Below are positions 1-14,407 of a stretch of 64,000 nucleotides of DNA, piece after piece. A program made the position numbers and the translations under genes. Below the pieces are notes generated by a model that saw nothing but the letters and a program-made list of their open reading frames with translations, did not search any database and had not been told where the DNA came from. The DNA is taken from NCBI RefSeq assembly GCF_024055665.1, contig NZ_JAMXMC010000008.1, positions 124,001-188,000 on the forward strand, written 5' to 3'. Each line of letters begins with the position of its first letter. Within the stretch, counting starts at the first letter, position 1. The DNA comes from Ideonella oryzae. GTDB taxonomy: Bacteria > Pseudomonadota > Gammaproteobacteria > Burkholderiales > Burkholderiaceae_C.

Positions 1-188
1 GCTACTTCCCGGCCGCCAGCCTGCCGCGCGTGAGCGACGCCAGCGCGCTCGCCCAATGGAGCCGTGAGCTGGCCCGCGTGAACCGCCATGCCGACCATCC
101 CTGGCAGGCGCCGCTGTTGATCGAGGCCCTGATGGCCCAAGGCCGCAGCGCCGTGCAGGCAGGTGGCGGCCGCCGTGGCTACACTTGA
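1..188 (+). CDS. holB: DNA polymerase III subunit delta' (C-terminal end only)
   Basis: This is the last 61 codons of a reading frame that enters from the left edge and stops at 186-188. The visible tail (alternating helices, with a segment reading SRELARVNRHADHPWQAPLL) resembles the C-terminal collar domain of the clamp-loader delta' subunit. The identification leans on context: in many Burkholderiales holB lies directly before pilZ and tatD, and both follow here, with pilZ starting 3 bases after this stop. The AAA+ core lies outside the window, so its motifs cannot be checked. Confidence 0.72.
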   Translation, partial: YFPAASLPRVSDASALAQWSRELARVNRHADHPWQAPLLIEALMAQGRSAVQAGGGRRGYT

Positions 189-191
189 TCC

Positions 192-587
192 ATGAGCGAT
201 ACCGACAGCAGAAGCCCTGGGCTGCCCACGGGGGCACCCGCCGTCTCCGGTCGACCCAGCGTGATCCAGCTGGTGTTCCGGGAGAAGGGGGCGCTCTATG
301 CGGCGTACATGCCCTTCTTCACCGAGGGCGGGCTGTTCGTGCCCACCACCCGTGAATACCAATTGGGCGATGACATCTACCTGCTGCTGTCCCTGCCGGG
401 CGACCCGCAGCGTTACCCGGTGGCGGGCAAGGTGGGTTGGCTGACGCCGGCCAACACCTCCGGCGGGCGCACGCAGGGCGTGGGCGTGCGGTTCCCGGGG
501 GACGAGAAGACGCGGGCGCTGAGGGTGCGGATCGAGGAGATCCTGGGCACCTCGCTGTCGTCCTCCAAGCCCACGCAGACGCTCTGA
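192..587 (+). CDS. pilZ: PilZ domain protein, type IV pilus PilZ type
   Basis: This 131-residue protein has one PilZ fold over about residues 20-110. It carries the block FTEGGLFVPTTREYQLGDDIYLLLSL and ends in GVGVRFPG, as in the founding PilZ of type IV pilus biogenesis. The RxxxR and D/NxSxxG signature of c-di-GMP-binding PilZ domains is not evident. This subgroup is known not to bind c-di-GMP well and instead acts through protein contacts such as PilB and FimX. It lies 3 bases after holB and upstream of tatD, a conserved co-transcribed order. No pilus structural gene is in the window, so the link to twitching motility comes from the family. Confidence 0.85.
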   Translation: MSDTDSRSPGLPTGAPAVSGRPSVIQLVFREKGALYAAYMPFFTEGGLFVPTTREYQLGDDIYLLLSLPGDPQRYPVAGKVGWLTPANTSGGRTQGVGVRFPGDEKTRALRVRIEEILGTSLSSSKPTQTL

Positions 588-666
588 CTGCGTTCCATTT
601 TCCCCGCCGGCTCCCGGGCCAAGCCCCTGGGCCGGGCCGCTGCGGCGACGGCCGCCTGTCCAGACC

Positions 667-1473
667 ATGTTCGTCGATTCCCATTGCCATCTCAGCTTTC
701 CTGAACTGAAGGCCAACCTGTCCCGGATCCGTGCCGACATGGCGCAGGCCGGGGTGGGGGCGGCGCTGTGCATCAGCACCCGCAAGGACGAGATTGCCGA
801 GGTGGTGGCCCTGGCCGAGACCGATGCCGCCTGGTGGGCCAGCGCCGGCGTGCACCCCGACACCGAGGACGAGCCCGAGATCAGCGAAGCCGAGCTGCTG
901 CAATGGGCGGCCCACCCCAAGGTGGTGGCCATCGGCGAGACCGGGCTGGACTACTACCGCCTGAACGGCCGCACGGTGGCCGACATGGCCTGGCAGCGCG
1001 AGCGCTTCCGGGTGCACATCCGGGCCTCGCAGGCCAGCGGCCTGCCGCTGATCATCCACACCCGCCATGCGAGCGAGGACACCCTGGCCTTGCTGCACGA
1101 GGCCGCCGCCACGGGGCCGGCGCCGCGTGGCGTGTTCCATTGCTTCACCGAAACCCGCGAGGTGGCCCGTGCCGCCCTGGACCTTGGCTTCCTGATCTCC
1201 TTTTCCGGGATCGTCACCTTCCGCAATGCCGAGGAGCTGCGCGAGGTGGCTCGCATGGTGCCGCTGGACCGCTGCCTGATCGAGACCGACAGCCCCTACC
1301 TGGCGCCGGTGCCTTTCCGCGGCAAGACCAACACACCCGCCCTGGTGCCCCATGTGGCGGCCGAGCTGGCCAAGCAAAAGGGACTGTCGGTGGAGGCGAT
1401 TGCCGAGGCCACGAGCCACAACTTCGAACAGCTTTTCGGTGTGCAGCTGCCCACCGTGGGAGCCGCAGCATGA
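667..1473 (+). CDS. tatD: TatD family metal-dependent hydrolase
   Basis: This 268-residue TIM-barrel hydrolase has normal family length. It starts with the metal-binding HxH (DSHCH, residues 4-8) and contains GETGLDYY (metal-bridging Glu), IHTRHA, FHCFTE and the late ETDSPYLAP motif, so all expected metal ligands are present. TatD proteins are 3'-5' exonucleases and D-aminoacyl-tRNA deacylase-like enzymes of the amidohydrolase superfamily, and they act in the cytoplasm. The stop codon overlaps the ATG of the ankyrin gene (ATGA at 1470-1473), so the two are translationally coupled. Confidence 0.93.
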   Translation: MFVDSHCHLSFPELKANLSRIRADMAQAGVGAALCISTRKDEIAEVVALAETDAAWWASAGVHPDTEDEPEISEAELLQWAAHPKVVAIGETGLDYYRLNGRTVADMAWQRERFRVHIRASQASGLPLIIHTRHASEDTLALLHEAAATGPAPRGVFHCFTETREVARAALDLGFLISFSGIVTFRNAEELREVARMVPLDRCLIETDSPYLAPVPFRGKTNTPALVPHVAAELAKQKGLSVEAIAEATSHNFEQLFGVQLPTVGAAA

Positions 1474-2117
1474 AGCGACGCCGTTGTTTGCAGGGTACGG
1501 CGGGTCTGCTGCTGGCCGCCACCGGGCTGGCCGCCAGGGCGGCCAGCTACGAAGACTGGTTCCGCTACATCGAACTGGACCTGGGCCGCGAGATCCAGAA
1601 GATGCTCCAGGCCGGCTTTGATGTGAACACTGTGGACCCGAAGGGGCAGAGCGGGCTGTATGTGGCGCTGCGCGAGGGCTCTGCCACCGTGGTGCCGGTG
1701 CTGCTGGCTTGGCCAGGCACGGCCCTGGATGCCCAGAACGCAATGGGGGAGACACCGCTGATGATGGCGGCGCTCAAAGGGCGCATGGACGTGATGGCCA
1801 GCTTGATCGCTCGCGGAGCCCGTATCAACAAGGACGGGTGGACGCCGCTGCACTACGCCGCGACCGGCCCCAACCCCGATGCGGTAGAGCTGCTGCTGGC
1901 CCACGGGGCCGTGCTGGACGCCGTGGCCCCCAATGGCAACACCCCGCTGATGATGGCGGCCGGCTACGGCGCCATCGACAGCGCCCGGCTGCTGCTGCGC
2001 CGTGGCGCCGATGCCCGGCCGCGCAACAAGGGTGGGCGCGACGCTGCCGACCTGGCCAAGGCCGCCGACCGCCTGGGCCTGGCCCAGGAACTGGGCGACG
2101 CGGCAGCAGCGCGCTGA
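1470..2117 (+). CDS. Exported ankyrin-repeat protein
   Basis: This 215-residue protein starts with a signal peptide: KRRRC followed by a hydrophobic stretch ending in ARAA. The RRRCLQG segment could be a Tat-type twin-arginine signal. Residues 35-205 form four to five ankyrin repeats, recognisable from TPLMMAA, TPLHYAA and LLLAHGA-type helices. Ankyrin repeats mediate protein-protein contacts, and the partner cannot be read from sequence. The start is fixed by the ATGA overlap with tatD. Small periplasmic ankyrin proteins often follow tatD in related genomes. The role is unknown. Confidence 0.85.
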   Translation: MKRRRCLQGTAGLLLAATGLAARAASYEDWFRYIELDLGREIQKMLQAGFDVNTVDPKGQSGLYVALREGSATVVPVLLAWPGTALDAQNAMGETPLMMAALKGRMDVMASLIARGARINKDGWTPLHYAATGPNPDAVELLLAHGAVLDAVAPNGNTPLMMAAGYGAIDSARLLLRRGADARPRNKGGRDAADLAKAADRLGLAQELGDAAAAR

Positions 2118-2125
2118 GCAACACA

Positions 2126-2158
2126 CCGACACATGTGTCGGACAAATTCCGACACATG
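2126..2158. repeat. Overlapping palindrome and hairpin built from CCGACACATG
   Basis: Bases 2126-2141 are a perfect 16-bp palindrome (CCGACACA/TGTGTCGG). Bases 2132-2141 also pair perfectly over 10 bp with 2149-2158 across a 7-base loop (acaaatt), so two mutually exclusive stems are possible. The site lies 8 bases after the ankyrin stop and about 90 bases before the next small gene. No T-run follows, so it is a weak candidate as an intrinsic terminator. A tandem operator is equally possible. Confidence 0.5.
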
Positions 2159-2250
2159 GCTTGTCTGCCGGCCGACTTCTTTGCCGAGTCCCGCTTGCCT
2201 ACAGTTCACTCCATGGCTTCCAACCGGGAGCCACCCACGGAGAGAACACC

Positions 2251-2478
2251 ATGCGCCATCAAGAAGTCATCGCTAATCCCTTCCTGATGCTGACCCAGCC
2301 GGACTCGATCCTGGCTGCGGTGGGGCGCTCTGAACGCCTGGGCCATCTGAAGCGCCGCGTGTGCCGCCCGCTGGACCGCCCGCTGATCCCCAAGGTCAAC
2401 CAAGCCGAGTTGAGCGCCTATGACGACGCGATCGATAGCGAAGTCGAAGCCGATCTGCCGGACGAAGCACAAGCCTGA
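2251..2478 (+). CDS. Small hypothetical protein (75 aa)
   Basis: This short soluble ORF is preceded by a purine-rich ribosome-binding site (ggagaga) ending 6 bases before the ATG. The protein is basic in the middle (LGHLKRRVCRPLDRPLIP) and strongly acidic at the end (DDAIDSEVEADLPDEAQA), with no membrane segment and no domain I recognise. It lies between the 2126-2158 hairpin and the convergent bioHC gene, whose stop is 20 bases away. The RBS and high third-position GC support it as real. The function is unknown. Confidence 0.6.
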   Translation: MRHQEVIANPFLMLTQPDSILAAVGRSERLGHLKRRVCRPLDRPLIPKVNQAELSAYDDAIDSEVEADLPDEAQA

Positions 2479-2498
2479 TTTCAGGCGATCCGGGGCCC

Positions 2499-4064
2499 TC
2501 AGGCAGGGCGCCGGGTCAAACTGAGGGACAGCACCCGGTAGCGGGCTGGCAGTCCCTGCGGGGTGCGAAAGCGCTCCATGGCGGCCATCCATGCCTGCAA
2601 GGCCCGGCGTCCCCCCAGGCCCGTGCGCGCAGGCTGCATGTGATGGGCGCCCACGCCCTTGATGGCATTGGCCAGGCTGCGGATGTCCAGGTGGTGGTCC
2701 ACCTCGTCCGCGCAGCTCTGCCAGTCCACTGTCCACAGCGTCGCATCCACCTGGGCCAGCAGCGCCTGGGCCGATGGAAAGCGATGCACATGGTCCAGGT
2801 CATCCACCGTGGCCCAGGCCTCGGCCAGTTCCTGCAGCGTTCCTTCGGCCAACGTGTTCAGCACCACCGTGCCACCGGGCTTCAGCACGCGGTGAACCTC
2901 GGCCAGAGCCGCTGAAAAGCTGTCGCACCACTGCAGCGCCAAGCTGGAATAGACCACGTCCACACTGGCATCGGGCAGGGGCATGTGCTCGGCGGGCGCG
3001 CAGATCCATTCGAAACGATCGCCCCATTGCGCCCGGGCCTGCGCCAGCATGCCCGAAGCCAGATCCAGCCCGATCACCCGGGCCTGCGGATAAGCCTGCT
3101 GCAGCGCCGGCAGGCAATAGCCCGTGCCGCAGCCCAGGTCCAGCACCGTGCGCACCGATTCGGGCGCCGCTGCAGGCAGCCGATCTAGCAATTGAAAAGC
3201 CAGACGGCGCTGGAGGAGGGCGCGTTGCTCGTAGGCCGTGGCAGCCTTGCTGAAGGCTTGAGCCACACGGCTTTGCAGGGGGGGCCGCCGCAACTGCTGC
3301 CACAGCGCATCAATCACTTGAGCCAGCGCCGCTGCATGGGTCAGGGGCAGGGCGTGCGGAGCATCGGCCAGCACCGAGACATCGCCAGGACGGCCCGTGA
3401 GCGACACGACGGCTTCGGCACAAGCTGCTGGCAGCACCGCATCCTGTCCCGCCAGCACATGGCGCACTGGAATGGTCAGAGTCCCCAGCACCGAGCGCAC
3501 ATCCAATCGCGCAAGCCAATCCAGTTCAGCACGCAGCGTGGGGCTGTCCGGCGCAGGCTGCTGTGCGTGGGCCTGCAGCCATTTCAGATGCTGCCGCAGT
3601 TCGCTGCCCAGGCAGCCCTTCAGTTCCAGGCCGGCGAAGCGGCGCAGCGTGCCGGCCACATCGTCCGCACCGGCGTACACCGCGTCGAAGAGTTGCTGTG
3701 GAACCCCGGTTGGCCAGTCGGTACTGGCGAGGAACTTGGGTGAAGCCGCCACCGTGACCACACCGGACACCTTCCTGGGGGTGGCACGGGCCGCCGCAGC
3801 CAGGGCCAGCATGCCACCCAGGGACCAGCCCACCCAGATCGCACCGGCTGGCGCCGATCTCAGCAGTTCGTCGAGGGCGGCATCCAGGTCGGCATTGCTG
3901 GCAGGCGACGCACCGCAGCCCGGCAGGTCAACGGCATGAAGTGCAAATCGGTCGCCAAGGGCCTCGGCCAGAGGCTGCCAGATCTGGGCGTTGGACGCGA
4001 AACCGTGGATACAAAACAAAGTGGGCAACCCTGGGTTGCCCATGACGTGCACCTTCAATGCCAT
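2499..4064 (-). CDS. Bifunctional pimeloyl-ACP methyl ester esterase (BioH) / malonyl-ACP O-methyltransferase (BioC) fusion
   Basis: This 521-residue protein joins two consecutive biotin-synthesis enzymes. Residues 1-255 are an alpha/beta hydrolase like BioH, with the HGF oxyanion region at 20-22, nucleophile Ser81 in GWSLGG, and probable acid Asp208 (AGQD) and His237 (DAPHALP). Residues 265-521 are a class I SAM methyltransferase like BioC, opening with the VAQAFSKAATAYEQ block and carrying the SAM loop VLDLGCGTG at 307-315. BioC methylates malonyl-ACP to start pimelate assembly and BioH removes the methyl at the end. The junction is continuous, with no internal stop or restart. Other bio genes are absent from the window. 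The upstream region holds the dif-like site. Confidence 0.88.
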   Translation of the reverse strand: MALKVHVMGNPGLPTLFCIHGFASNAQIWQPLAEALGDRFALHAVDLPGCGASPASNADLDAALDELLRSAPAGAIWVGWSLGGMLALAAAARATPRKVSGVVTVAASPKFLASTDWPTGVPQQLFDAVYAGADDVAGTLRRFAGLELKGCLGSELRQHLKWLQAHAQQPAPDSPTLRAELDWLARLDVRSVLGTLTIPVRHVLAGQDAVLPAACAEAVVSLTGRPGDVSVLADAPHALPLTHAAALAQVIDALWQQLRRPPLQSRVAQAFSKAATAYEQRALLQRRLAFQLLDRLPAAAPESVRTVLDLGCGTGYCLPALQQAYPQARVIGLDLASGMLAQARAQWGDRFEWICAPAEHMPLPDASVDVVYSSLALQWCDSFSAALAEVHRVLKPGGTVVLNTLAEGTLQELAEAWATVDDLDHVHRFPSAQALLAQVDATLWTVDWQSCADEVDHHLDIRSLANAIKGVGAHHMQPARTGLGGRRALQAWMAAMERFRTPQGLPARYRVLSLSLTRRPA

Positions 4065-4126
4065 GAGGCTAGTGTGCCTGAAGTCAAGACGATCCTCGGA
4101 TGGGCGCTCAGGCTCACTTGATCAAG

Positions 4127-4154
4127 ATGCACGACAATGTATATTATGTCAAAT
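4127..4154 (+). other. dif: dif-like XerC/XerD recombination site
   Basis: The 28-bp site reads as a left arm ATGCACGACAA (4127-4137), central hexamer TGTATA (4138-4143) and right arm TTATGTCAAAT (4144-4154). The centre is identical to the E. coli dif centre, and the right (XerD) arm matches at 10 of 11 positions. The left (XerC) arm matches only weakly, mainly in its last bases. It is intergenic, between the bioHC start and a small ORF, in locally AT-rich DNA. It could be the chromosomal dif or a dif copy left by a Xer-dependent mobile element. Confidence 0.65.
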
Positions 4155-4169
4155 AAAGTGAGCAGGCTT

Positions 4170-4454
4170 TTAGGCGACGGCGCCGGCTGATCGACACGTA
4201 CAAGAAGGCCCTAGAGAGGCCTTCTTGTTGGCTTCCCGCCGGGAAGGAGCGAAGAAAGTGCGGCCGCTGCCCGTCTGAGGGGCTTCGGCAGTTCGAATGG
4301 TGCGCACCTCGTCTTCGAGAGCAACAACACGCCGCGTCAAACGGGCATGTCCGACCATGAGCACGACTAACAACATGAACAACAATACCTGGACCTTCAA
4401 CAACGGAGTGACATCTGCTGCCGCTCTGATGGCATCAGGTTCGACCGGTGACAT
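4170..4454 (-). CDS. Possible small single-pass membrane protein
   Basis: This weakly supported ORF has a short polar N-terminus, one hydrophobic helix (LLKVQVLLFMLLVVLMVG) and a charged, probably coiled-coil segment (RLTRRVVALEDEVRTIR). The ATG at 4454 was chosen. A TTG at 4478 would add eight residues, and neither has a clear ribosome-binding site. The last part of the frame runs through the 4200-4228 hairpin, so the true C-terminus may be an artefact of rearrangement. No family is recognised. It lies in the lower-GC patch beside the dif-like site. Confidence 0.4.
   Translation of the reverse strand: MSPVEPDAIRAAADVTPLLKVQVLLFMLLVVLMVGHARLTRRVVALEDEVRTIRTAEAPQTGSGRTFFAPSRREANKKASLGPSCTCRSAGAVA
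4200..4228. terminator. Perfect 11-bp hairpin, possible terminator
   Basis: The arms acaagaaggcc (4200-4210) and ggccttcttgt (4218-4228) pair perfectly around a 7-base loop. The A-rich and T-rich ends are built into the stem, as in many bidirectional terminators, but no separate T-tract follows on either strand. It lies inside the weak ORF at 4170-4454 and 46 bases from the dif-like site, which argues that the ORF end or the hairpin is not functional. Confidence 0.4.
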
Positions 4455-4572
4455 CGAGTGCGTCAAAGCGTCAGCCAAGGTGTCGCTGATCCATTCATGA
4501 CGTGAAAGGCCCGGCTATAGGGGCGCAAGGCCAATCCCTGCCCTCCCCTTGGGGTTCCGGTACCAGTGCGGC

Positions 4573-4866
4573 TCACATGAAATTCTGAAGGAATTCGCTC
4601 AAGTCAATGACGGTGGCCTCGGGAGGTATTTGATCGAACAGGCCAACAGGAATGTCCGACATCATGGACAGGGGGAGCGCAAAAATCACAACCTTGGCCT
4701 CATACACGGCCTGGCGCGCATCGGACATCTGGGCCCCTACCCAATGAAGATCGTCCATGGGTTCGGTGCCATTCAGCCCGGCAACATGCACTTCGTGACC
4801 GTCCATGGCGAGGCGACGGGCGAGCACGCGCACAACATCGATGGCCCCAATGATTCCGACTTTCAT
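4573..4866 (-). pseudogene. Truncated NAD(P)-binding oxidoreductase (F420-dependent NADP reductase-like)
   Basis: The frame opens with a Rossmann motif (MKVGIIGAIDVVRVLARRLA), continues through VVIFALPLSMMSDI and reaches ATVIDLSEF, then stops after 97 residues. Relatives run to about 200 residues. The glycine-rich loop reads GIIGAIDVV, not the usual GxGxxG, so nucleotide binding is doubtful. Beyond the stop another frame reads WYRNPKGRAG, which resembles the NYYP..DG segment expected next and suggests a frameshift. It lies 44 bases downstream of the SDR on the same strand, so the two may once have formed an operon. Confidence 0.55.
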
Positions 4867-4910
4867 GCGATGCTGTCTCAATCCGTTGGACGAGGCCCTT
4901 GGCCGCTCAA

Positions 4911-5717
4911 TCAGGCCAGTCCGAACGTTTTCCGGATGCCCTTCTCTACCGGACTCGCCGGCATGAAGCGGCGCAACTTGGCCAGGAGAGAAGCCTCGCC
5001 CCTGGGGGTATGGCGCATCTTCCAGCGTCCCAAGGCGGCGTTCACGATCGTGGCGGCCACGCCATCGGGCTCCGGGGCCTTTTGAACATTCTTCTGGATG
5101 GCTTGAGAAACGACCGCAAGCTCACGGGCATAGGCCGGGATTTTCTCGGCAGTCATTGGCGCGTTGACGTCCAGGTTGGTCTTGGTAAACGAGGGTTCGA
5201 CAAGCGTCACGCGAACGCCGAATTGGCGTACCTCGTGATCCAGCGTCTCAGAGAAGCCCTCGACGGCGTGCTTCGACGCCGAATAGAGCGCCATGTAGGG
5301 CGCCGGCAAGAATCCCAATACCGAGCTGACGTTGACAATGCGTCCAGCGCGCTGCTCACGCATGTGGGGCAGCACAGCCCGGATGGTGCGGAGCAGCCCG
5401 AAGAGATTGGTGTCTAACAATGCCTTTGCTTCTTCGACCGATGTCTCCTCGGCGGCTCCTAGCAGGGTCACCCCGGCAGAGTTCACCAAGACATCGATGC
5501 GTTTGACTTGCGCGATGATTTGTTGAATGCCGAGCCGGACCGAATCCTCGTCTCGGATGTCCATCTGAATGAGTACCACGCCGGGAATGGGCTTGGCTTG
5601 TGCGGCATTCCGTACGGTTCCATAAACCAGGAAGCCTTTGTCTGCAAGCTGCATGGCCGCAGCACGACCGATTCCTGACGAGACACCGGTCACCAAGACG
5701 ACTTGGGAGTTTGACAT
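4911..5717 (-). CDS. Short-chain dehydrogenase/reductase (classical SDR)
   Basis: This 268-residue classical SDR has the TGVSSGIG cofactor loop at residues 10-17, VNSAG, the catalytic Ser region (NVSSVLG) and YSASK. It should oxidise or reduce a small alcohol or ketone with NAD(P); the substrate cannot be read from sequence. The ATG at 5717 was chosen because AAGGAA lies just before it. The frame is open for 31 further codons upstream, but without a ribosome-binding site. Base composition is clearly lower in GC than the flanking housekeeping genes, which suggests acquisition by transfer. The truncated oxidoreductase follows downstream. Confidence 0.88.
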   Translation of the reverse strand: MSNSQVVLVTGVSSGIGRAAAMQLADKGFLVYGTVRNAAQAKPIPGVVLIQMDIRDEDSVRLGIQQIIAQVKRIDVLVNSAGVTLLGAAEETSVEEAKALLDTNLFGLLRTIRAVLPHMREQRAGRIVNVSSVLGFLPAPYMALYSASKHAVEGFSETLDHEVRQFGVRVTLVEPSFTKTNLDVNAPMTAEKIPAYARELAVVSQAIQKNVQKAPEPDGVAATIVNAALGRWKMRHTPRGEASLLAKLRRFMPASPVEKGIRKTFGLA

Positions 5718-5799
5718 TTTTTGGTTCCTTGAATTTCTGAGAAGCGCCAAGCTGTGTGACGCTGAATTGAGAAGGTGATTTCGATGGGAGACGGTCCGG

Positions 5800-6153
5800 T
5801 CAATCCACATGGTCAGAAATCATCGCTCCGATGCGGCGCTGCAGGTCCGACACGGATTTCATATCGCTCTCGTGATATTCCTGAGAAGGCTGGCGAGTCA
5901 CAGACACGTCCTCATCGCTGTGCATCACCTTGCGCGCGAGTGCATGCGGGTCCGTCTGGATGGGGCTGGAAATCTCTGTGGTCCCCTCATATGCTTCCGT
6001 GGCCTGCGTGGATGTGGAGAGGATCATGTTTCGCGCAAGCTGGTACGGATCCACGGAGGCCATCGCGAAGGTCGGTCCCCCGGAAAGCAGAATTGCCGCC
6101 GCGGCAACACCCTGTGTGTTCAGCCATCTCTTGATATTGACAATAATGTTCAT
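5800..6153 (-). CDS. Small exported protein with a duplicated DPxxLARxxMxS motif
   Basis: This 117-residue protein has a strong ribosome-binding site (AAAGGAG, 6 bases before ATG) and a probable signal peptide (about residues 1-32, cleavage near FAMA/S). The mature part contains two related segments, DPYQLARNMILS and DPHALARKVMHS, separated by a polar linker. The tail is charged (DLQRRIGAMISDHVD). No known family is recognised. It lies between the SDR and the RND operon in the lower-GC patch. The periplasmic location is inferred from the signal peptide. Confidence 0.6.
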   Translation of the reverse strand: MNIIVNIKRWLNTQGVAAAAILLSGGPTFAMASVDPYQLARNMILSTSTQATEAYEGTTEISSPIQTDPHALARKVMHSDEDVSVTRQPSQEYHESDMKSVSDLQRRIGAMISDHVD

Positions 6154-6229
6154 TTCAACTCCTTTGGCGGCACATGGCCAGATCCTGTGGGCAGGATGAA
6201 TTTCGATTGGGTCGCTGTTCTTGAGGGAT

Positions 6230-9200
6230 TCAGGTATTTTCTGGCCTGATCTTGAACCAGATCGAATACATGGCCGGTAGAAAAACGAGCGTCAGAATCG
6301 TCCCGGCCAGGGTTCCCCCGATCAGCGTGTAAGCCAGCGTGCCCCAGAACACTGAATGGGTCAGCGGAATGAAGGCCAGGATGGCCGCCAACGCCGTCAG
6401 GATCACGGGGCGGGCGCGCTGCACGGTTGCTTCGACCACCGCACGGAATGGGCCCAACCCAGCCTGTTCGTTCTCGCGAATCTGTCCGATCAAGATCAGC
6501 GTGTTGCGCATCAGGATGCCCGACAGCGCGATCAGGCCGACCAGTGCATTGATGCCGAAGGGCTGCTGGAACAGGATCAGTGTGGGCACGACGCCAATCA
6601 GCCCCAGCGGACTGGTCAGGAAGACCATCACCATCCCGGCGATCGATCGGACCTGCAGGATGATGATCAGCAGAGTGGCCGCCACCATGATGGGGAAGAT
6701 CGGCAGCATGGCGACCGTGGCCTTGCCGGACTCCTCGATGGAGCCGGCCTCCACGATCTGGTAGCCGCTCGGCAGCTTGGACATGATCGGTTGCAGCTGC
6801 TTGGTCATGGCCGTCGACACGTCGGGCGGCTGCAGGCCGTCGGCAATGTCACCACGCACGGTGATCGTGGGCGTGCGGTCGCGCCGCCGCAGGATCGGGT
6901 CTTCCATGCGCACCTCGACCTTGCCGACCTGCGACAGCGGGATGCGCTGCCCAGACGATCCGACCAGCGTGAAGCCGGCGATCTTCGCGGGGTCCAGACG
7001 GATGTCGCCGGCCGCGCGGCCGACCACCTGCACCGAGCGGATGTCCTCGCGCACTTCCGTCAGCGGCGCCCCGTTCAGCAGGAACTGCAGTTGCAGAGCC
7101 ACCGAGCTGGAGCTCAGCCCCACGGCCTGGAGCCGGTCTTGGTCGAGGGTGAAGTGCAGGGAGGGAACACGCGGGCCCCAGTCCGTGTTGACGGTGCGCA
7201 TCATCGGGCTGGCCTGCATGACAGCTTCGACCTGGGCCGAGATCTCGCGCAGCTTGTCGGGGTCGGGGCCCATCACCCGGTAGGCCACCGGGAAAGGCGA
7301 CGGAGGGCCGAACACGATCTGGGTGACGCGCACCCGCGCTTCGGGCGCCAGGCCGTCGGCCACCGCCTGTCGCAGCCTGAGCTTGAGCGCCTCCCGTTCC
7401 TTGTCGTTGCCCGCCAGGACCACGATCTTGGCGAACGAGGGATCGGGCAACTCGGGCGCCATGGCCAGGAAGAAACGCGGTGCGCCCTGGCCGATGTAGG
7501 AGGTCACGATCCTGGCCTCCTGCTGCTTGGCCAGCCAGGCCTCGACCTTCGCCGTGGCCGCGCCGGTCTGCCCGATCGAGGTGCCATAGGGCATCTGAAC
7601 CTCGACCAGCACTTCCGGCCGGTCGGAGGTCGGGAAGAACTGCTTCTTGACCACGGCCATGCCGAGCACCGCCATCACGAACAGGCTGATCACCGTTGCG
7701 GCAACGATCCACTTGCGGGCAATGACGCGGCCCAGCACCCGGCGGAAGCGGTTGTAGTGGGGGGTGTCGTAGATGGCCGCGTGTCCGCCCTCCACTGTCT
7801 TGAAGTCCGGCAGCAGCTTGACGCCAAGGTAGGGCGTGAACGCCACCGCCACCACCCAGGACGCGATCAGCGCGATGCCGACGATCCAGAACATGTTGCT
7901 GGTGTATTCACCCGCCGTGGAACGGGCAAATCCATTCGGCATGAAGCCGATGGCCGTGACCAGCGTGCCGGACAGCATGGGGGCCGCCGTATGGCTCCAG
8001 GCGTAGGCCGACGCGGCGATGCGGCTGTAGCCCTCCTCCATCTTCACCACCATCATTTCGATGGCGATGATCGCGTCGTCCACCAGCAGGCCGAGTGCCA
8101 GGATCAGCGAGCCCAGCGTGATGCGGTCGAAGTTCTTGCCGGAGGCGGCCATGATCACGAACACGGCTGCCAGGGTCAGCGGCACGGCCGCCGCCACCAC
8201 GATGCCGACGCGCCAGCCCATGCTGAGGAAGCAGACCACCATCACGACCAGCAGGGCGACGAAGAACTTGACCATGAACTCATCGACGGCCGAGCGGATG
8301 TTGACGGCCTGATCGGTCACCTTCGTCAAGGACATGCCCAGCGGGAGGTCCGCGTTGATCTGGGTGACCTCGGATTCGAGTGCCTTGCCAAGATCGAGCC
8401 CGTTCCAGTCGTCGCGCATCACGACGCCCAGCAGCAGCGCCGGCTCGCCGCCGTTGCGGACCAGGAAGGTCGCGGGATCTTCATACCCGCGCTCGACACT
8501 GGCCACATCCGACAGCTTCAGCGTGCGCCCCTGCGCGACGATCGGCGTCTGGCGGATCTTCTCCAGCGAGTCGAAGGCGCCATCGACACGCAGAAAGACC
8601 TGCGGTCCCTTGGTTTCGATCGAGCCGGCGGGCGTCAGGACGTTCTGGTTGTTGAGCGCGGTGAAGATGTCCTGCGGCGCCACCCCCAGGGTCGCCAGGC
8701 GGTCATGGGAGAAGGAGACGAAGATGCGCTCCGGCTGCTCTCCGATGATGTTGACCTTCTTGACCCCCGCCACATGCAGCAGCCTCTGGCGCAGCGTTTC
8801 CGCGTCGCGTGCCAGCAGCCGCTGGGGCTCGCCTTTGGCCTTCAGGGCCAAGAGCGCAAATGTCACGTCCGCGTACTCGTCGTTGACCATCGGGCCAATG
8901 ACGCCCGCAGGCAGTTTCTTGGCCTCGTCGCTGATCTTCTTGCGGGCCTGATAGAACTCTTCCTGGACTGCGGACGGTGGCGCGCTGTCGAGCAGCGAGA
9001 CCATGTTGAAGGCCAGACCGGGACGGGTGAAGGTTTCCGTGCGGTCGTACCAGCGCAACTCCTGCATGCGCTTTTCCAGCGGCTCGGCCACCTGGTCCTG
9101 CATCTCCTGCGCCGTGGCGCCCGGCCAGGCGGTGACGATCGTCATCTGCTTGATCGTGAAGGGCGGGTCTTCCGCACGGCCGAGCTTGAAGAACGCCAGA

Positions 9201-9292
9201 ACGCCGGCGGCCGAGATCAGGAGAATCAGGAACAGGGTGATGGCGCGTTCCCGCACGGCGAGCGCCGAGAGATTGAAGCGGCTGTCGCTCAC
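6230..9292 (-). CDS. RND efflux transporter inner-membrane permease (AcrB/HAE-type)
   Basis: This 1020-residue permease has full family length and two homologous halves. The first helix is near residues 15-35, large periplasmic loops follow, and central helices carry the proton-relay segment LGLLVDDAIIAIEMMVVKMEE. The C-terminal half repeats the fold (ISGILMRNTLILIGQIREN). RND pumps trade protons for outward movement of hydrophobic drugs, solvents or detergents. Its ATG overlaps the adaptor stop by 4 bases, so the pair is one operon. The presumed outer-membrane partner is at 11195. The substrate is not predictable; the neighbouring FadL-type porin hints at hydrophobic compounds. Confidence 0.93.
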   Translation of the reverse strand: MSDSRFNLSALAVRERAITLFLILLISAAGVLAFFKLGRAEDPPFTIKQMTIVTAWPGATAQEMQDQVAEPLEKRMQELRWYDRTETFTRPGLAFNMVSLLDSAPPSAVQEEFYQARKKISDEAKKLPAGVIGPMVNDEYADVTFALLALKAKGEPQRLLARDAETLRQRLLHVAGVKKVNIIGEQPERIFVSFSHDRLATLGVAPQDIFTALNNQNVLTPAGSIETKGPQVFLRVDGAFDSLEKIRQTPIVAQGRTLKLSDVASVERGYEDPATFLVRNGGEPALLLGVVMRDDWNGLDLGKALESEVTQINADLPLGMSLTKVTDQAVNIRSAVDEFMVKFFVALLVVMVVCFLSMGWRVGIVVAAAVPLTLAAVFVIMAASGKNFDRITLGSLILALGLLVDDAIIAIEMMVVKMEEGYSRIAASAYAWSHTAAPMLSGTLVTAIGFMPNGFARSTAGEYTSNMFWIVGIALIASWVVAVAFTPYLGVKLLPDFKTVEGGHAAIYDTPHYNRFRRVLGRVIARKWIVAATVISLFVMAVLGMAVVKKQFFPTSDRPEVLVEVQMPYGTSIGQTGAATAKVEAWLAKQQEARIVTSYIGQGAPRFFLAMAPELPDPSFAKIVVLAGNDKEREALKLRLRQAVADGLAPEARVRVTQIVFGPPSPFPVAYRVMGPDPDKLREISAQVEAVMQASPMMRTVNTDWGPRVPSLHFTLDQDRLQAVGLSSSSVALQLQFLLNGAPLTEVREDIRSVQVVGRAAGDIRLDPAKIAGFTLVGSSGQRIPLSQVGKVEVRMEDPILRRRDRTPTITVRGDIADGLQPPDVSTAMTKQLQPIMSKLPSGYQIVEAGSIEESGKATVAMLPIFPIMVAATLLIIILQVRSIAGMVMVFLTSPLGLIGVVPTLILFQQPFGINALVGLIALSGILMRNTLILIGQIRENEQAGLGPFRAVVEATVQRARPVILTALAAILAFIPLTHSVFWGTLAYTLIGGTLAGTILTLVFLPAMYSIWFKIRPENT

Positions 9293-10404
9293 GGGCGCAC
9301 TCCTTCGGCCGCGATGGCAACGGTGGGCTCCGTGAGCCGCACCTGCTGGCCTTCACGCAAGAGATGCGCGCCGAGCGCAACAACCTGTTCCCCTCGCTGG
9401 AGCCTGCCCGTCACCCGCGCAGCATCGTCCTCAATGCGCTCGACCGTCACCGGGCGCCACGAGACTCTTGACGGCTTGCCGTTGACAATCCAGACGCCCG
9501 TGCCCTTGCCAGCATCGAACACGGCGCCCATCGGCACGCTCAAACTGCGCTGCGCGCTGGAGGCCGCGTCGCTGATCCGCACGACGACCGTGGAGCCCAA
9601 GGCCGCATTCGACAGTTCGCCGTCCAGCACATACCGGGCTTCGAAGGTGCGCGTGAGCCGGTCTGCGGCATCGGACAGCTGGCGCAACCTGGCCGGCACC
9701 ACCACACCGTCCTTGCCATAGAGCGAGGCTTCCGCCGTGGAGCCGATCGCGGGACGCAGCGTCTCCGGCAACTGGATCACCGCTTCGCGTTGGCCCGCAT
9801 GGGCCAGACGCACGACCGGCTGCCCCGCGCTCACCACCTGCCCTGGTTCGGCCAGCGTTTCCACGACCACGCCGTCGCCATCGGCAACCAGCTCCGTATA
9901 GCGGGTTGCATTGCGAGCCACTTCCGACTGGGCCTCAGCCGCACTCAGCTGCGCCTTGGCGGCATCCGCGGCGGCTTTGGCCTGGTCATAGGCGGAGGCT
10001 GAAATGGCCCCGGTGCCGCGAAGATCCCTGAAGCGGGCCTCATCCTCCGAGGCTTGCTGTGCCCTTGCGCGGGCGGCTGCAGCCACCTCCTGCTGCGCGT
10101 GTGCCGCGAGCGCGAGATCCACAGGATCGATGCGCATGAGCACCTGCCCGCGTTTGACGGTCTGCCCGGCGTCCACCAGACGCTCCAGCACCTTGCCTGG
10201 GACGCGAAAGCCCAGGTCGCTCTGCACGCGGGCCGCGACCGTGCCGGTGAACGAGCGGGATGTGGCGGCGGCGTCCCGGGCGGACACCACGCGGACCAGC
10301 GGCACCTCGGTGCGTGGATCGGTGGCCGGCTTGTCACCGCATGCGGCCAGAGCCAGCGGCAGAGCACAGACGACGAGAGGTGCGGCAAAACGGAACCGAG
10401 ACAT
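9289..10404 (-). CDS. RND efflux periplasmic adaptor (membrane fusion protein), lipoprotein
   Basis: This 371-residue adaptor starts with a lipoprotein signal (ALPLALAACGD, lipobox Cys near residue 22). It then follows the MFP plan: a beta-barrel/lipoyl half-motif (VPGKVLERLVDAGQTVKRGQVLMRID), an alanine-rich alpha-hairpin (about 95-155) and the returning lipoyl half (DGVVVETLAEPGQVVSAGQPVV). It should bridge the RND permease to the outer-membrane channel. It is the first gene of the adaptor-permease operon. A 24-bp operator at 10448-10471 lies 44 bases upstream of its ATG, so the TetR next door probably represses it. Confidence 0.92.
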   Translation of the reverse strand: MSRFRFAAPLVVCALPLALAACGDKPATDPRTEVPLVRVVSARDAAATSRSFTGTVAARVQSDLGFRVPGKVLERLVDAGQTVKRGQVLMRIDPVDLALAAHAQQEVAAAARARAQQASEDEARFRDLRGTGAISASAYDQAKAAADAAKAQLSAAEAQSEVARNATRYTELVADGDGVVVETLAEPGQVVSAGQPVVRLAHAGQREAVIQLPETLRPAIGSTAEASLYGKDGVVVPARLRQLSDAADRLTRTFEARYVLDGELSNAALGSTVVVRISDAASSAQRSLSVPMGAVFDAGKGTGVWIVNGKPSRVSWRPVTVERIEDDAARVTGRLQRGEQVVALGAHLLREGQQVRLTEPTVAIAAEGVRP

Positions 10405-10447
10405 GAAGATCCCCTGGCGGAGTGGTCAGGGCTTCATTCTCATTCTT

Positions 10448-10471
10448 GTGACCAATTTAGTCAATGGTCAC
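10448..10471. promoter_or_regulatory. TetR-type operator upstream of the efflux operon
   Basis: This is an inverted repeat of GTGACCA (10448-10454) and TGGTCAC (10465-10471) around a 10-base AT-rich spacer. The same 7-bp arms with the same spacer length occur at 11145-11168, on the other side of the TetR gene. It lies between the tetR stop and the adaptor start. Confidence 0.75.
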
Positions 10472-10487
10472 TTTGCATTTGACTCAC

Positions 10488-11105
10488 TCAGGGTGACAGG
10501 CTGCGAAGCACCAGGCTGGAAAGCTGCCCCGGCGCCACCTCGGCATAGTCAAAGCTCTGCTGCAGGATCAAGGGGTTCAGGAAAGGACGCATGACCAGAT
10601 AGATGGCCATCACCGTCTCATCCAGAGGGGTCTTGCGCTCGAAGTCCCCGCTTTGACGCCCCTCTTGGAGGATCTCCCGAATGAGTTCCTGGATGCGCTG
10701 CTCGTAGACCAGCGTGGGCCGCCAGCGCTCGATGCACGCCGAGGCGGCGATTTCATAGAGCTTGCGATCCTGGAAGAACAGCCGAAGGCTGGAATCCACG
10801 GCGGCCTTGAACAACCGTCGCAGCTTCTCCGGCGGCCGGTCCGCCTCGTTGACTGCGGCCCGGATATCGGCCTCGATCTCACCCAGGCAACCTCCGCAGA
10901 TCATCTCGCCGATGGCCTGCTTGGACTCGAAGAACTTGTAGATGTAGGCCTTGGAGAAGCCGATGACCTTGGCCAGGTCGGAGACGGTGGTTTTCTCGTA
11001 GCCGTAATGGCTGAAATGCTCCTTGGCCGCCGCGACGATTTGATCGCGCACGTCGTGGTCCGCCGGACCTCGCGTCGAAGCGGCGGGGGTGTCTGACTTG
11101 TTCAT
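10488..11105 (-). CDS. TetR/AcrR family transcriptional repressor of the efflux cluster
   Basis: This 205-residue regulator has an N-terminal TetR helix-turn-helix at about residues 22-65 (IVAAAKEHFSHYGYEKTT, then KVIGFSKAYIYKFFESK). The C-terminal ligand domain is divergent. A Cys pair (CGGC) lies near residue 72. Family members repress adjacent pumps and release DNA on binding a pump substrate. Two identical-arm operators flank the gene, one before the adaptor operon and one in the tetR/outer-membrane-channel divergent region. The simplest reading is that it represses itself and both efflux transcription units. Confidence 0.88.
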   Translation of the reverse strand: MNKSDTPAASTRGPADHDVRDQIVAAAKEHFSHYGYEKTTVSDLAKVIGFSKAYIYKFFESKQAIGEMICGGCLGEIEADIRAAVNEADRPPEKLRRLFKAAVDSSLRLFFQDRKLYEIAASACIERWRPTLVYEQRIQELIREILQEGRQSGDFERKTPLDETVMAIYLVMRPFLNPLILQQSFDYAEVAPGQLSSLVLRSLSP

Positions 11106-11144
11106 GGGTGAGAGCTTACGTCAGGTGATGGGGTTGGACAACAA

Positions 11145-11168
11145 GTGACCAATTGGTATTATGGTCAC
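11145..11168. promoter_or_regulatory. TetR-type operator in the tetR/outer-membrane-channel divergent promoter
   Basis: The arms GTGACCA (11145-11151) and TGGTCAC (11162-11168) flank a 10-base AT-rich spacer, matching the site at 10448-10471 exactly in arms and spacing. It lies 40 bases upstream of the tetR ATG and 26 bases upstream of the channel ATG, where it could block both promoters. Confidence 0.75.
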
Positions 11169-11194
11169 TTCATGTTGTGCATGAAGGATGCCCC

Positions 11195-12655
11195 ATGTTG
11201 CCGAAACACACCCTTGCCGCGCTTGCTGCGATCAGTCTCTTCGCGGGCTGCGCAGTCGGCCCCGACTATGTCCGTCCCGACGTGAGCTTGCCAGCGCAGT
11301 TCCAGGGGCAAGCCGCGGCCGAGCGACCTTCCCGGGAGGCCAGCGCAGGCATGGCGACCTGGTGGAACGGCTTTGACGATCCCCAGATGAGTCGCCTCGT
11401 GGACCGGGCTTTGGCGCAGAACCTGGACCTCGCACAGGCATCTGCGCGCGTGACCCAGGCGCGTGCGGGGCTCGGGGCGGCCGGCGCGGCGTTGCTTCCC
11501 TCTGGCAATGTGAGCGGTCAGGCCAGCCGGGCGTATCAGTCGGTTGAGACACCGTTGGGCCAGATCCTGAACTCGCGCCCGGGCTTTGACCGCTATGGAA
11601 ATGCCTACGAGGCCGACCTGGGGGCGAGCTGGGAGCTGGACCTCTTCGGTGGCCTGCGCCGAGAGCGAGAGGCGGCGCTTGCGGAGTACGAATCCTCCGC
11701 AGCGGGTGCCACTGCCGCGCGCTTGGCCGTCGCTGCCCAGGTGGCCGATACCTATCTCGTCATCCGTGGGCTCCAGGCCCGTCTGGATGTCGCACGCCGA
11801 CAGGTTCAGACGGAGCAGGAGTTGCTGAGAATCGTCGGCCTCCTTCACAGCAAGGGACTCGCCGCAGAACGTCAGGTCAGGCAAGCGGAAGGCGCGCTCG
11901 CGCAGGCCCGTGCTTCGGTGCCGGCCATGGAGGCCGGGCTGGACGTGGCCATGAACGCGATGGATGTCTTGCTGGGCACCCCGCCGGGAACCCATCGCAC
12001 GGAACTCACCGGCGCCCAGGCCATTCCCGCCCCTCCGCCCATCTCCGCGATCGGCTCCCCGAGCGATTTGCTGCGACGCCGGCCCGACCTGATCGTGGCA
12101 GAGCGCCGTCTGGCGGCTTCAAACGCGCGCATCGGCGCCGCTGTCGCCGAGTACTTTCCCAAGCTCTCAGTCAGTGGCCTGATCGGCAGCGCGACCTCCG
12201 TTTCCGGCAGCAATCTGTTCACGGGTGGGGCCACCCAGGCCGCAGGTGTGCTGGGGCTGCGCTGGCGACTGTTCGATTTCGGGCGCATCAACGCCCAGAT
12301 TGACCAGGCCAAGGGGCAAGAGGCGGAAATGCTGGCTGCCTACCGACTTGCCGCGCTGCGTGCGACGGAAGACGTGGAAGACGCGCTGTCCGCGCTGGTC
12401 AAGCGCGAAGAGCAACTGGCGGTGCTGACGCAAGGCGTGGACGCCCTGGCCAGTGCGCGAGCGTCGTCCCTGGCCGCTTACCAGAGGGGCGTGGTCAGCC
12501 TCATCGAGGTTCTGCAGGCGGACGAGCGCCTGCTATCGGCCTCCGACGCACAGGTGCAGGCGCGCACCGATTCCGCGCGTGCCGCCGTGGCCACCTTCAG
12601 GGCGCTGGGCGGAGGGTGGCAACCCGATGAGCCCGGCCTGACAGCCATGAACTGA
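11195..12655 (+). CDS. Outer-membrane efflux channel lipoprotein (NodT/OprM family)
   Basis: This 486-residue protein starts at the ATG preceded by GAAGGA. It has a lipoprotein signal (LFAGCAVGPDY, with Cys at about 17) and the GPDYVRP start typical of NodT-type channels. Two OEP domains follow (about 60-260 and 280-470), with long helices such as LDLAQASARVTQARAGLGAAGAAL and the conserved PSDLLRRRPDL segment. It forms the trimeric TolC-like duct of a tripartite pump. It is transcribed away from tetR and should join the adaptor and permease encoded on the opposite strand. Confidence 0.93.
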   Translation: MLPKHTLAALAAISLFAGCAVGPDYVRPDVSLPAQFQGQAAAERPSREASAGMATWWNGFDDPQMSRLVDRALAQNLDLAQASARVTQARAGLGAAGAALLPSGNVSGQASRAYQSVETPLGQILNSRPGFDRYGNAYEADLGASWELDLFGGLRREREAALAEYESSAAGATAARLAVAAQVADTYLVIRGLQARLDVARRQVQTEQELLRIVGLLHSKGLAAERQVRQAEGALAQARASVPAMEAGLDVAMNAMDVLLGTPPGTHRTELTGAQAIPAPPPISAIGSPSDLLRRRPDLIVAERRLAASNARIGAAVAEYFPKLSVSGLIGSATSVSGSNLFTGGATQAAGVLGLRWRLFDFGRINAQIDQAKGQEAEMLAAYRLAALRATEDVEDALSALVKREEQLAVLTQGVDALASARASSLAAYQRGVVSLIEVLQADERLLSASDAQVQARTDSARAAVATFRALGGGWQPDEPGLTAMN

Positions 12656-12760
12656 CGCATGACGTCCGCTGGCCATTCCGGGCAGGTCTTGGGACGGTTC
12701 ACCGGGCCATGCGACATCACCACGGGCCCCCGAGCCCACTACACAGGAGACAAACTGAAC

Positions 12761-14092
12761 ATGCCGTTCCAGAAGACACATCGCCAAGCCCTCTTCGCCC
12801 TCACGACCAGCCTGGCCTGCGTCGGCACCGCCAGCGCTGCGGCGTTTCAGCTCAAGGAGCAGAGTGCCGCAGGGCAAGGTCGCGCCTTCGCCGGGTCCAT
12901 CAGCCAGGGGGGGGACGCCACGGTCGTCGCGAACAACCCGGCCGCCATGACGCTGCTCAACGGGCCGCTGCTGCAGACGGACCTGGCCGTCATCGACTAC
13001 TCGGTCAAGTTCAACGGCACCGGCAAGGACGCACTGGGGCGCCCACTCGCGGGAGGCAACGGAGGAGATGCCGGGGACACGGCCCCTGTTCCTTCGCTGT
13101 ACTTCCACACGCCGCTGACGGATCAGGTCCACCTGGGCCTCTTCATCACGGCCCCCTTCGGCTTCAAGACCGAGTACGCCGACGGCTGGATGGGCCGCTA
13201 CAACGGGATCAAGACCGAACTGAAGGCGGTCGACATGGGGGCAGCGGGCTCCTACAAAGTGAACGACATGCTGTCGCTCGGCGCGTCCCTCTTCGTCGAG
13301 CGACTCGATGTGAAGCTGCGCGACGCCGTCGACTTCGGTGCCATGTTGGCAGGCTCGCACGTCCCTGGCTTTCTGCCAGGCAGCGCCGATGGGCGCACTG
13401 ACATCAATGGCCACAACACGACGCTTGGCTATACCCTCGGGGCGCTGCTCCGCCCCAGCGAGGGTCTGTCGGTCGGCGTGGCCTATCGCTCCGAGGTCAA
13501 GCACAAGCCCGACGACGTTGGTGTGAACTTTTCGGTGCCCGACAGCGCCAATGCCGTGCTGTCCGCGGTCCGCCCCAACACCTTCGTCAACACGACGGCC
13601 CGCACGGAGCTGATCTTGCCGGCCTCCTGGACGGTCAGTGCCAGCCAGCAGCTGAATGACCGATGGACGGTGATGGCGGACTACTCCCACACCGCGTGGA
13701 GCAGGTTCAACAACGTGGTGCTGGACTTCGACTCCCAACTGCCCAACGAGACGCTGCGCTTCGGCTATCGGAACACTTCCTTCTACTCGGTGGGGGCGGA
13801 GTACCAAGCCGACGACAGTTGGACCGTCCGTGGTGGCCTCGGTTATGACCAAACACCTGTGACCAACGCTCTGCGGGATGTCCGGGTTCCCGATGTGGAC
13901 CGGCGCTGGCTGTCGCTCGGGGCGACGTGGCGTGCGAGCAAACGCATGAGCTACAGCCTGGGGTACACGCATCTGTTCCTCAAGGACGCGGCCGTGAACC
14001 TCACCGCCGCCACGGGAAGCACATTGCAAGGCTCCTACAAGCTGGGAAGCAACATCCTGGCGGTGTCTGCTCAATACGCCTGGATGCCCTGA
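12761..14092 (+). CDS. OmpP1/FadL family outer-membrane transporter
   Basis: This 443-residue protein uses the ATG at 12761, which follows AGGAGA. The signal peptide ends at SAAA, directly before FQLKEQSAAGQGRAFAG, the FadL N-terminal plug signature. NNPAAMTLL and repeated amphipathic beta strands up to a C-terminal aromatic strand (ILAVSAQYAWMP) follow. FadL proteins take up long-chain fatty acids or aromatic hydrocarbons across the outer membrane. It lies 105 bases behind the efflux channel on the same strand. Pairing of a hydrocarbon porin with an RND pump suggests handling of a hydrophobic compound (inference). Confidence 0.9.
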   Translation: MPFQKTHRQALFALTTSLACVGTASAAAFQLKEQSAAGQGRAFAGSISQGGDATVVANNPAAMTLLNGPLLQTDLAVIDYSVKFNGTGKDALGRPLAGGNGGDAGDTAPVPSLYFHTPLTDQVHLGLFITAPFGFKTEYADGWMGRYNGIKTELKAVDMGAAGSYKVNDMLSLGASLFVERLDVKLRDAVDFGAMLAGSHVPGFLPGSADGRTDINGHNTTLGYTLGALLRPSEGLSVGVAYRSEVKHKPDDVGVNFSVPDSANAVLSAVRPNTFVNTTARTELILPASWTVSASQQLNDRWTVMADYSHTAWSRFNNVVLDFDSQLPNETLRFGYRNTSFYSVGAEYQADDSWTVRGGLGYDQTPVTNALRDVRVPDVDRRWLSLGATWRASKRMSYSLGYTHLFLKDAAVNLTAATGSTLQGSYKLGSNILAVSAQYAWMP

Positions 14093-14407
14093 CGGGGCTC
14101 CCCTGGCAAGAGACGCCGCCCGCCAGCCACACGTCACGCCACCAATCCTGACGCCACCGCCCGAATCCGCTCGCCGCCGGAATGGCCTCCGTATTCCGTG
14201 TGGCGCAGTAACGGTTTGTGGCGCTGCCGGCAGACCCACACGCCGGATCGGTTGTTGGGGGGCGTAGTCGATGGCGATCGGGGCGCCGACCGACCAGGCG
14301 GCGGCGTCCAGCACGGGCAGATCATCGGGGTTGCTCACGGCCTGGGTTCTCCATCGGCATCATCGATGCCGGGCATGCTGCCGAGGCAGAAATGCGGGTG
14401 TATCGTG
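14093..14407. other. Intergenic stretch between fadL-like gene and M14 hydrolase
   Basis: This 315-base region contains no complete gene on the plus strand. Its first 100 bases have no clear feature. From about 14200 to 14338 the minus strand shows strong coding bias and a plausible GTG start with a GGAGA box, listed separately as a gene stump. No T-rich terminator is visible after the fadL-like gene. Confidence 0.5.
14200..14338 (-). pseudogene. N-terminal stump of an interrupted gene of unknown function
   Basis: Reading from a GTG at 14338 (with GGAGA about 10 bases upstream), the first 40-odd codons are almost all GC-ending and give a natural-looking N-terminus (DDLPVLDAAAWSVGAPIAI). After roughly position 14200 the same frame loses this bias and becomes low-complexity, running antisense into the fadL-like gene. 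This looks like a native gene cut by insertion of the efflux island. The family is not recognised and the break point is approximate. Confidence 0.3.

What the first reader, a model, noticed from the sequence alone, without database searches (positions are those of the whole stretch)
4127..4154. Candidate dif site with a conserved XerD arm and divergent XerC arm
The central hexamer and the right arm are almost the same as E. coli dif (16 of 17 positions), which is very unlikely by chance in GC-rich DNA. The left arm is poorly conserved. Either this is the chromosomal dif and the window spans the replication terminus, or it is a dif-type junction left by an integrative element that exploits Xer. 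The lower-GC patch and acquired-looking genes immediately to the right fit the second idea.
Basis: partly seen in the sequence, partly recalled or inferred. Interest (0 to 1): 0.75.

Follow-up and report, generated by a model that had tools for sequence, protein, structure and literature searches.

The report
Chromosome dif site with recoded half
This is the ordinary site where this bacterium separates joined chromosome copies at the end point of replication; one half looks odd only next to E. coli, and seems to have changed together with the enzyme, XerC, that reads it.

Summary
The 28-mer at 4127-4154 is real: centre plus right arm match E. coli dif at 16 of 17 positions, none expected in shuffles. 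It is the chromosomal dif, not an integration scar. It is the only such site found in the 4.70 Mb genome. The FtsK-guiding motif GGGNAGGG flips polarity at it: 40+/3- left, 11+/51- right. XerC, XerD and FtsK-gamma genes are present. Fifteen of 16 genus genomes have a dif, and all 15 left arms end in GACAA: lineage-specific, not decayed.

XerC residues covary with dif bases. In 34 further genomes residue 259 was predicted from base -6 in 31, the class of residue 102 from base -3 in 34. Tree-aware support is limited.

DNA right of dif (4184-14393) is replaced by other DNA in relatives G001 and G013; in G001 a filamentous prophage lies between dif and a second half-site. No second copy was found in the window.

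Side lead: sister genome G006 shows no XerC, XerD or dif, but a plasmid-type recombinase module near its KOPS flip.

The parts
4127..4137 (+). left (XerC) arm of dif, ATGCACGACAA
   Evidence: ends in GACAA in 15 of the 15 genus genomes with a dif-like site
4138..4143 (+). central hexamer TGTATA
4144..4154 (+). right (XerD) arm TTATGTCAAAT
   Evidence: only copy in the genome with the centre, up to 3 mismatches
3345..3352 (+). last forward KOPS motif (GGGNAGGG) before dif
   Evidence: contig position 127344 counted from 0
4536..4543 (-). first reverse KOPS motif after dif (CCCTGCCC on the + strand)
2499..4064 (-). gene left of dif: alpha/beta hydrolase domain followed by a methyltransferase domain (looks like a BioH-BioC fusion, name by inference)
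   Evidence: flank conserved in G001
4184..14393 (.). stretch next to dif that is replaced by other DNA in G001 and G013: SDR gene, small ORFs, RND efflux genes and a TetR-type regulator

Best explanation
The site is the chromosomal dif of a Burkholderiales bacterium. FtsK, steered by KOPS motifs that point to it from both sides, is expected to translocate to it, and XerC on the left arm with XerD on the right arm to exchange strands in the central hexamer and split chromosome dimers (established pathway; shown here are the site, its single copy, the KOPS flip and the genes; the reaction is inferred). The left arm is divergent only against E. coli: it is a lineage-specific XerC half-site that has changed together with XerC (covariation shown, direct contact inferred).
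For: Single copy in the genome. KOPS 40+/3- left and 11+/51- right of it over 291 kb, flip within 1.2 kb of it, 80% of a change-point posterior on the interval that holds it. XerC-type 315 bits and XerD-type 298 bits, FtsK-gamma 98.5 bits. One dif in nearly all genus genomes, with the same arm ending. Site in a gap between listed ORFs of 90 aa or more, 8 of 28 bases G or C. XerC columns 102 and 259 follow dif bases -3 and -6.
Against: The genome is in 31 contigs, so the position opposite the origin could not be measured directly. Within the window the G+C skew is noisy and shows no clean switch. The arms are only partly palindromic (5 of 11). XerC/XerD were identified by profile score (below the curated XerC cut-off of 335 bits, as in 14 of 16 genus genomes). 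For the XerC part: 8 of 90 pairs break the -6 rule, and independent contrasts are few (best p 0.0625).
Confidence: 0.93

Rival explanations
1. The site is an attachment junction left by an integrative element that exploits Xer (IMEX), and the true dif is elsewhere.
For: DNA to the right differs in relatives and has a low-GC patch; relative G001 does carry a filamentous prophage between its dif and a second XerD half-site 7.2 kb away.
Against: No second copy or half-site; KOPS polarity flips at the site; the left arm is the one conserved in the genus; the window stretch showed no phage-type gene among the proteins scanned (9 scanned).
Confidence: 0.02
2. A decayed or chance dif-like sequence near the terminus, with no function.
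For: Left arm matches E. coli at only 3 of 11 positions.
Against: None expected by chance; arm ending conserved in 15 of 15 genus genomes that have a site; no other candidate in the genome.
Confidence: 0.04
3. About the XerC part only: the XerC/dif covariation is shared ancestry; arm types and XerC residues are clade markers and do not touch each other.
For: Independent contrasts on the XerC tree are few: 5 of 6 agree and none disagrees for a pyrimidine at -6 with R/H at 259 (p 0.0625); for the other traits there are 2 to 5 contrasts on supported branches; for -7 with residue 256 most contrasts show no difference in the residue (on average 1.2 of 5 agree).
Against: Among 261 XerC columns the best ones for -2, -3, -6 and -7 are 99, 102, 259 and 256; 102, 256 and 259 fall, by a hand alignment with Cre recalled from memory, on Cre Q90, R259 and E262, of which R259 and E262 are described as loxP selectivity residues (PMC7438526, passages). 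R with C or T at -6 recurs in several families, including Burkholderiaceae-type genomes, family f39 and a Lamprocystis gammaproteobacterium. XerD has W at the equivalent place (8 of 8 confirmed XerD rows, plus 4 rows taken as XerD by their sequence; E. coli XerD) and its arm has A at -6.
Confidence: 0.3

Closest known systems
Chromosomal dif of proteobacteria (Carnoy and Roten 2009, PMC2731167: abstract, passages)
   Same: 28-bp site, TGTATA centre, conserved XerD arm, low G+C, in a gap between genes, at the terminus, with XerC, XerD and FtsK-gamma genes in the genome
   Different: XerC arm ends in GACAA instead of the usual ATAA; the Rhodoferax site in their table (ACTTGATACGA...) is a neighbouring type. 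Variable XerC arms are already a described property of dif.
Filamentous-phage IMEX at dif (CTX-type, recalled)
   Same: present in relative G001: native dif, a stretch with G2P-type and Zot-family genes, then a second XerD half-site
   Different: not present in the window
Cre/loxP specificity residues R259 and E262 (PMC7438526, passages)
   Same: XerC columns that follow dif bases fall on these places by a hand alignment from memory
   Different: natural variation in a chromosome-maintenance recombinase; no structure or assay here

Membership tests
chromosomal dif (XerCD type) | conserved centre and XerD arm | tested here: met
   16 of 17 positions
chromosomal dif (XerCD type) | single copy per chromosome | tested here: met
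   one match in the assembly with up to 3 mismatches
chromosomal dif (XerCD type) | at the terminus / KOPS convergence point | tested here: met
   KOPS flip at the site; G+C skew +0.036 / -0.010
chromosomal dif (XerCD type) | XerC, XerD and FtsK-gamma encoded | tested here: met
   315 and 298 bits to TIGR02224 (below the curated cut-off, but so in 14 of 16 genus genomes); FtsK-gamma 98.5 bits, over its cut-off
chromosomal dif (XerCD type) | non-coding, low G+C, palindromic | tested here: met
   no ORF of 90 aa or more listed over it; 8 of 28 G+C; palindromy only partial, 5 of 11 arm positions (read)
chromosomal dif (XerCD type) | XerCD recombination at the site | not testable with these tools
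   needs an assay
IMEX attachment junction | second dif-like copy bounding an element | tested here: not met
   none in window or genome
IMEX attachment junction | mobile-element genes between the copies | tested here: inconclusive
   nine window proteins scanned, none phage-type; not every ORF of 4184-14393 was scanned

The most novel reading that the evidence does not exclude
The divergent XerC arm is the product of a readable recognition code. In XerC of Burkholderiales and some gammaproteobacteria, residue 259 (Q, W or R; numbering of this genome's 341-aa XerC) sets dif base -6 (G, A or C/T), residue 102 (basic or not) sets -3 (T or C/G), and residues 256 and 99 help set -7 and -2. Dif arms have been rewritten together with these residues several times, so the XerC half-site could largely be predicted from XerC and the reverse.
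Probability: 0.65. Interest if true: 0.6.

Novelty: new member of a known kind. Interest (0 to 1): 0.45.

Why it matters
The site itself is ordinary and shows where this chromosome ends replication. Its odd arm led to a testable rule that links XerC residues to dif bases. Carnoy and Roten (2009, passages) ask whether a conserved dif position is matched by a conserved XerC residue and say that structural data on XerC were lacking. Such a rule would help to find dif sites and to predict which Xer-exploiting elements can use which host. The sister genome in which no XerC, XerD or dif was found raises the further question, also raised by the Legionella XerL work (PMC9765430, passages), of how chromosomes change dimer-resolution systems.

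Tried and rejected
IMEX junction at 4127-4154: rejected, no second copy. Window G+C skew alone: too noisy to place the terminus, replaced by KOPS polarity over the whole contig. tRNA-linked integration: no tRNA found in the window. Repeats in 2000-14000: only short, weakly alike families among the 20 direct and 25 inverted ones shown. Literature on XerC/dif covariation: four searches (15, 15, 1 and 12 rows seen) listed no paper on it; subscription journals are mostly not held, so absence is not shown. A paper search for KfrA with tyrosine recombinase and dimer resolution (12 of 51 rows seen) listed no paper on such a module; PMC11724359 (passages) does not mention KfrA. KOPS coupling of the KfrA/recombinase module on plasmids: on the Polaromonas plasmid no flip at the module (1+/5- left, 0+/9- right); on pSBC1_3 only 5 motifs in 100 kb, undecided; on pOLGA1 polarity changes somewhere between 68 and 116 kb, near one of its two modules, inconclusive. 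These results speak against, or do not help, the G006 reading. Structure prediction and NCBIfam scans were not run (one search failed).

Full report
OBSERVATION. Window 4127-4154 reads ATGCACGACAA-TGTATA-TTATGTCAAAT. With the E. coli centre and XerD arm (recalled) as a 17-mer there is one mismatch, no other match with up to 3 mismatches in 64 kb, and none in 100 shuffles. The G+C dip to the right is real.

IT IS THE CHROMOSOMAL DIF. The window is G000:C30:124001-188000 of a 4.70 Mb genome in 31 contigs, 99% complete. The centre plus XerD arm with up to 3 mismatches occurs once in it, and so do the two arms with any centre. On the 291 kb contig the octamer GGGNAGGG (KOPS) is 40+/3- left of the site and 11+/51- right; the last + copy is 0.8 kb before it and the first - copy 0.4 kb after it. 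In a count not aimed at KOPS, GGGCAGGG is the most polar octamer of the contig. A change-point model puts 80% of its posterior on the 1.2 kb interval that holds the site. G+C skew is +0.036 left and -0.010 right. In relative G001 (a 3.84 Mb contig, 20 stretches of 20 kb sampled) the motif also flips at dif. In the genome XerC-type and XerD-type genes score 315 and 298 bits to the XerC model (the curated cut-off of 335 is reached in 2 of 16 genus genomes) and FtsK-gamma 98.5 bits. A KOPS flip at dif is the known arrangement (PMC13342612, passages).

THE LEFT ARM IS LINEAGE-SPECIFIC, NOT DECAYED. The exact pattern ATGTATATTATGTNAA is in 13 of 16 genus genomes, the window's own included. G011 and G003 have sites with variant centres; G006 has two matches with 2 mismatches that look like chance. 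All 15 arms end in GACAA. Of the seven other genera of the family with an exact match, six have arms ending in ATACGA and one (G026) in GACGA; of the nine genomes of other families of the order, eight end in ATAA and one (G043) in TAAA. Rhodoferax with ..GATACGA is in the table of Carnoy and Roten (PMC2731167, passages), and variable XerC arms are a known property of dif (same source; PMC3025954, passage).

XERC CHANGES WITH THE ARM. XerC from 26 genomes with three arm types, plus G026, showed columns that follow the arm type (XerC of G002 and G004 could not be extracted and G009 was left out). A second set of 29 genomes was added. The rule for base -6 took its final form after this second set, so that set is only partly a test; 25 of its 29 fit, the misses being G236, G125, G212 and G185. 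A scan of XerC columns against arm positions over 56 pairs ranked 102/-3 first and 259/-6 third (numbering of the 341-aa XerC, L079:1477-2502:-, which is the script's number minus 55). The rule was written down before the last test. Eighty named XerC loci were fetched; 50 went into a dif search, 49 genomes were held, 36 had a match and 13 had none; XerC could be extracted for 34 of the 36 (G288 and G293 were lost). Where a genome had two pattern matches (8 genomes, G288 among them) I chose the more dif-like one by eye. Residue 259 was as predicted in 31 of 34 (misses G268, G286, G302). Residue 102 fell in the predicted class in 34 of 34; the script's non-basic class was wider than the L/I/T of my note, and with L/I/T alone it is 33 of 34. 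Over all 90 pairs: -6 = A with W in 20 of 22, C or T with R in 28 of 31, G with Q in 34 of 37; -3 = T with R/H in 44 of 44, C with L/I/M in 42 of 42, G with T in 3 of 3, A with K in 1 of 1; -7 = C with R at 256 in 43 of 50, and no R at 256 in the other 40. A scan of 261 columns over the 90 pairs ranks 259 first for -6 and -5, 256 first for -7, 102 first for -3 and 99 first for -2; for -8 and -9 no column stands out. XerD rows carry W at the place of 259, as does E. coli XerD, 1A0P, and the XerD arm read from the same end has A at -6.

LIMITS OF THE XERC PART. The tree-aware test is weak: for a pyrimidine at -6 with R/H, 5 of 6 independent contrasts agree and none disagrees (p 0.0625); the other traits have 2 to 5 contrasts on supported branches, and for -7 with 256 most contrasts show no change of the residue. 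Cre equivalents (Q90, R259, E262) come from a hand alignment with Cre recalled from memory; what Cre R259 and E262 do is from PMC7438526 (passages). The XerH-difH paper says that most base contacts come from the N-terminal domain and that the helix of the catalytic domain in the outer major groove is part of mainly backbone contacts (PMC5241119, passages); that fits residue 102 better than 259.

THE RIGHT FLANK. Homology with G001 covers window 1-4183 (88.7%) and resumes at 14394 (91.4%). Of 15 relatives compared, G013 resumes 2.6 kb after its dif with window 15411 (83.8%); the 1 kb that was fetched left of its dif gave no match. So the stretch next to dif differs in these three genomes. In the window it holds an SDR gene, small ORFs and RND efflux genes with a TetR-type regulator; window 6243-12621 is about 76% identical to DNA on large replicons of Burkholderia, Cupriavidus and Paraburkholderia. 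In G001 the stretch between dif and a second XerD half-site (GGGTAACTGTC-TGTATA-TTATGTCAAAT, 7.2 kb away) encodes a G2P-type replication protein and a Zot-family protein, which makes it a filamentous prophage; that Xer inserted it is inferred.

SIDE LEAD, G006. This genus member (3 contigs, the largest 3.46 Mb, completeness given as 100) has no match above 95 bits to the XerC model, while the best matches of the other 15 are 298 bits or more. No dif was found in it, but FtsK-gamma is there. Its KOPS polarity changes most probably between 2,311,445 and 2,319,783 (posterior 0.67; the 95% set is 66 kb). In that interval lie a tyrosine recombinase (L328:15951-17111, minus strand) and a divergent KfrA_N gene, and between them a 28-bp near-palindrome of 11-6-11 form, ATTTACGATAA-CTCTCA-TTATCAAAAAT. 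The recombinase has tblastn matches in 1,947 of 72,556 plasmid records, nearly all under 60% identity. Of six plasmid loci looked at, four have a divergent gene annotated as DNA-binding protein beside it and five have a related motif upstream; pA81 has a different palindrome there. It may have taken over chromosome dimer resolution, as single-recombinase systems do elsewhere (XerL, PMC9765430, passages), or be an inserted plasmid piece. Against a takeover: on the Polaromonas plasmid the module is not at a KOPS flip, G006 holds other tyrosine recombinases too, and the flip is located only to tens of kb. I give the takeover about 0.35.

Noticed in passing
L328:15951-18250 (G006:C1 about 2,315,951-2,318,250): Genus member G006, in which no XerC, XerD or dif was found, has a divergent module of tyrosine recombinase, 28-bp 11-6-11 near-palindrome and KfrA_N gene in the interval where its KOPS polarity most probably flips; similar modules lie on large plasmids. 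On one plasmid checked the module is not at a flip.
   Followed up: partly
G001:C1:2033260-2040464 (in L059 and L060): Filamentous prophage (G2P-type and Zot-family proteins) between the native dif and a second site with the same centre and XerD arm but another XerC arm.
   Followed up: partly
window 4184-14393: 10.2 kb stretch beginning 30 bases after dif, replaced by other DNA in G001 and G013; its RND efflux part resembles copies on large Burkholderiales replicons at about 76% identity.
   Followed up: partly
G033:C2:541982-542002 and G019:C1:2196514-2196534 (L182, L173): Second sites with intact arms but other centres beside the main dif of the same genomes; the one on the other contig of G033 may be the dif of a second replicon.
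   Followed up: no
PDB chain 9i5v_14: A chain listed under the name RaiA aligns over about 300 residues with XerC, so the name shown may belong to another molecule of the entry.
   Followed up: no
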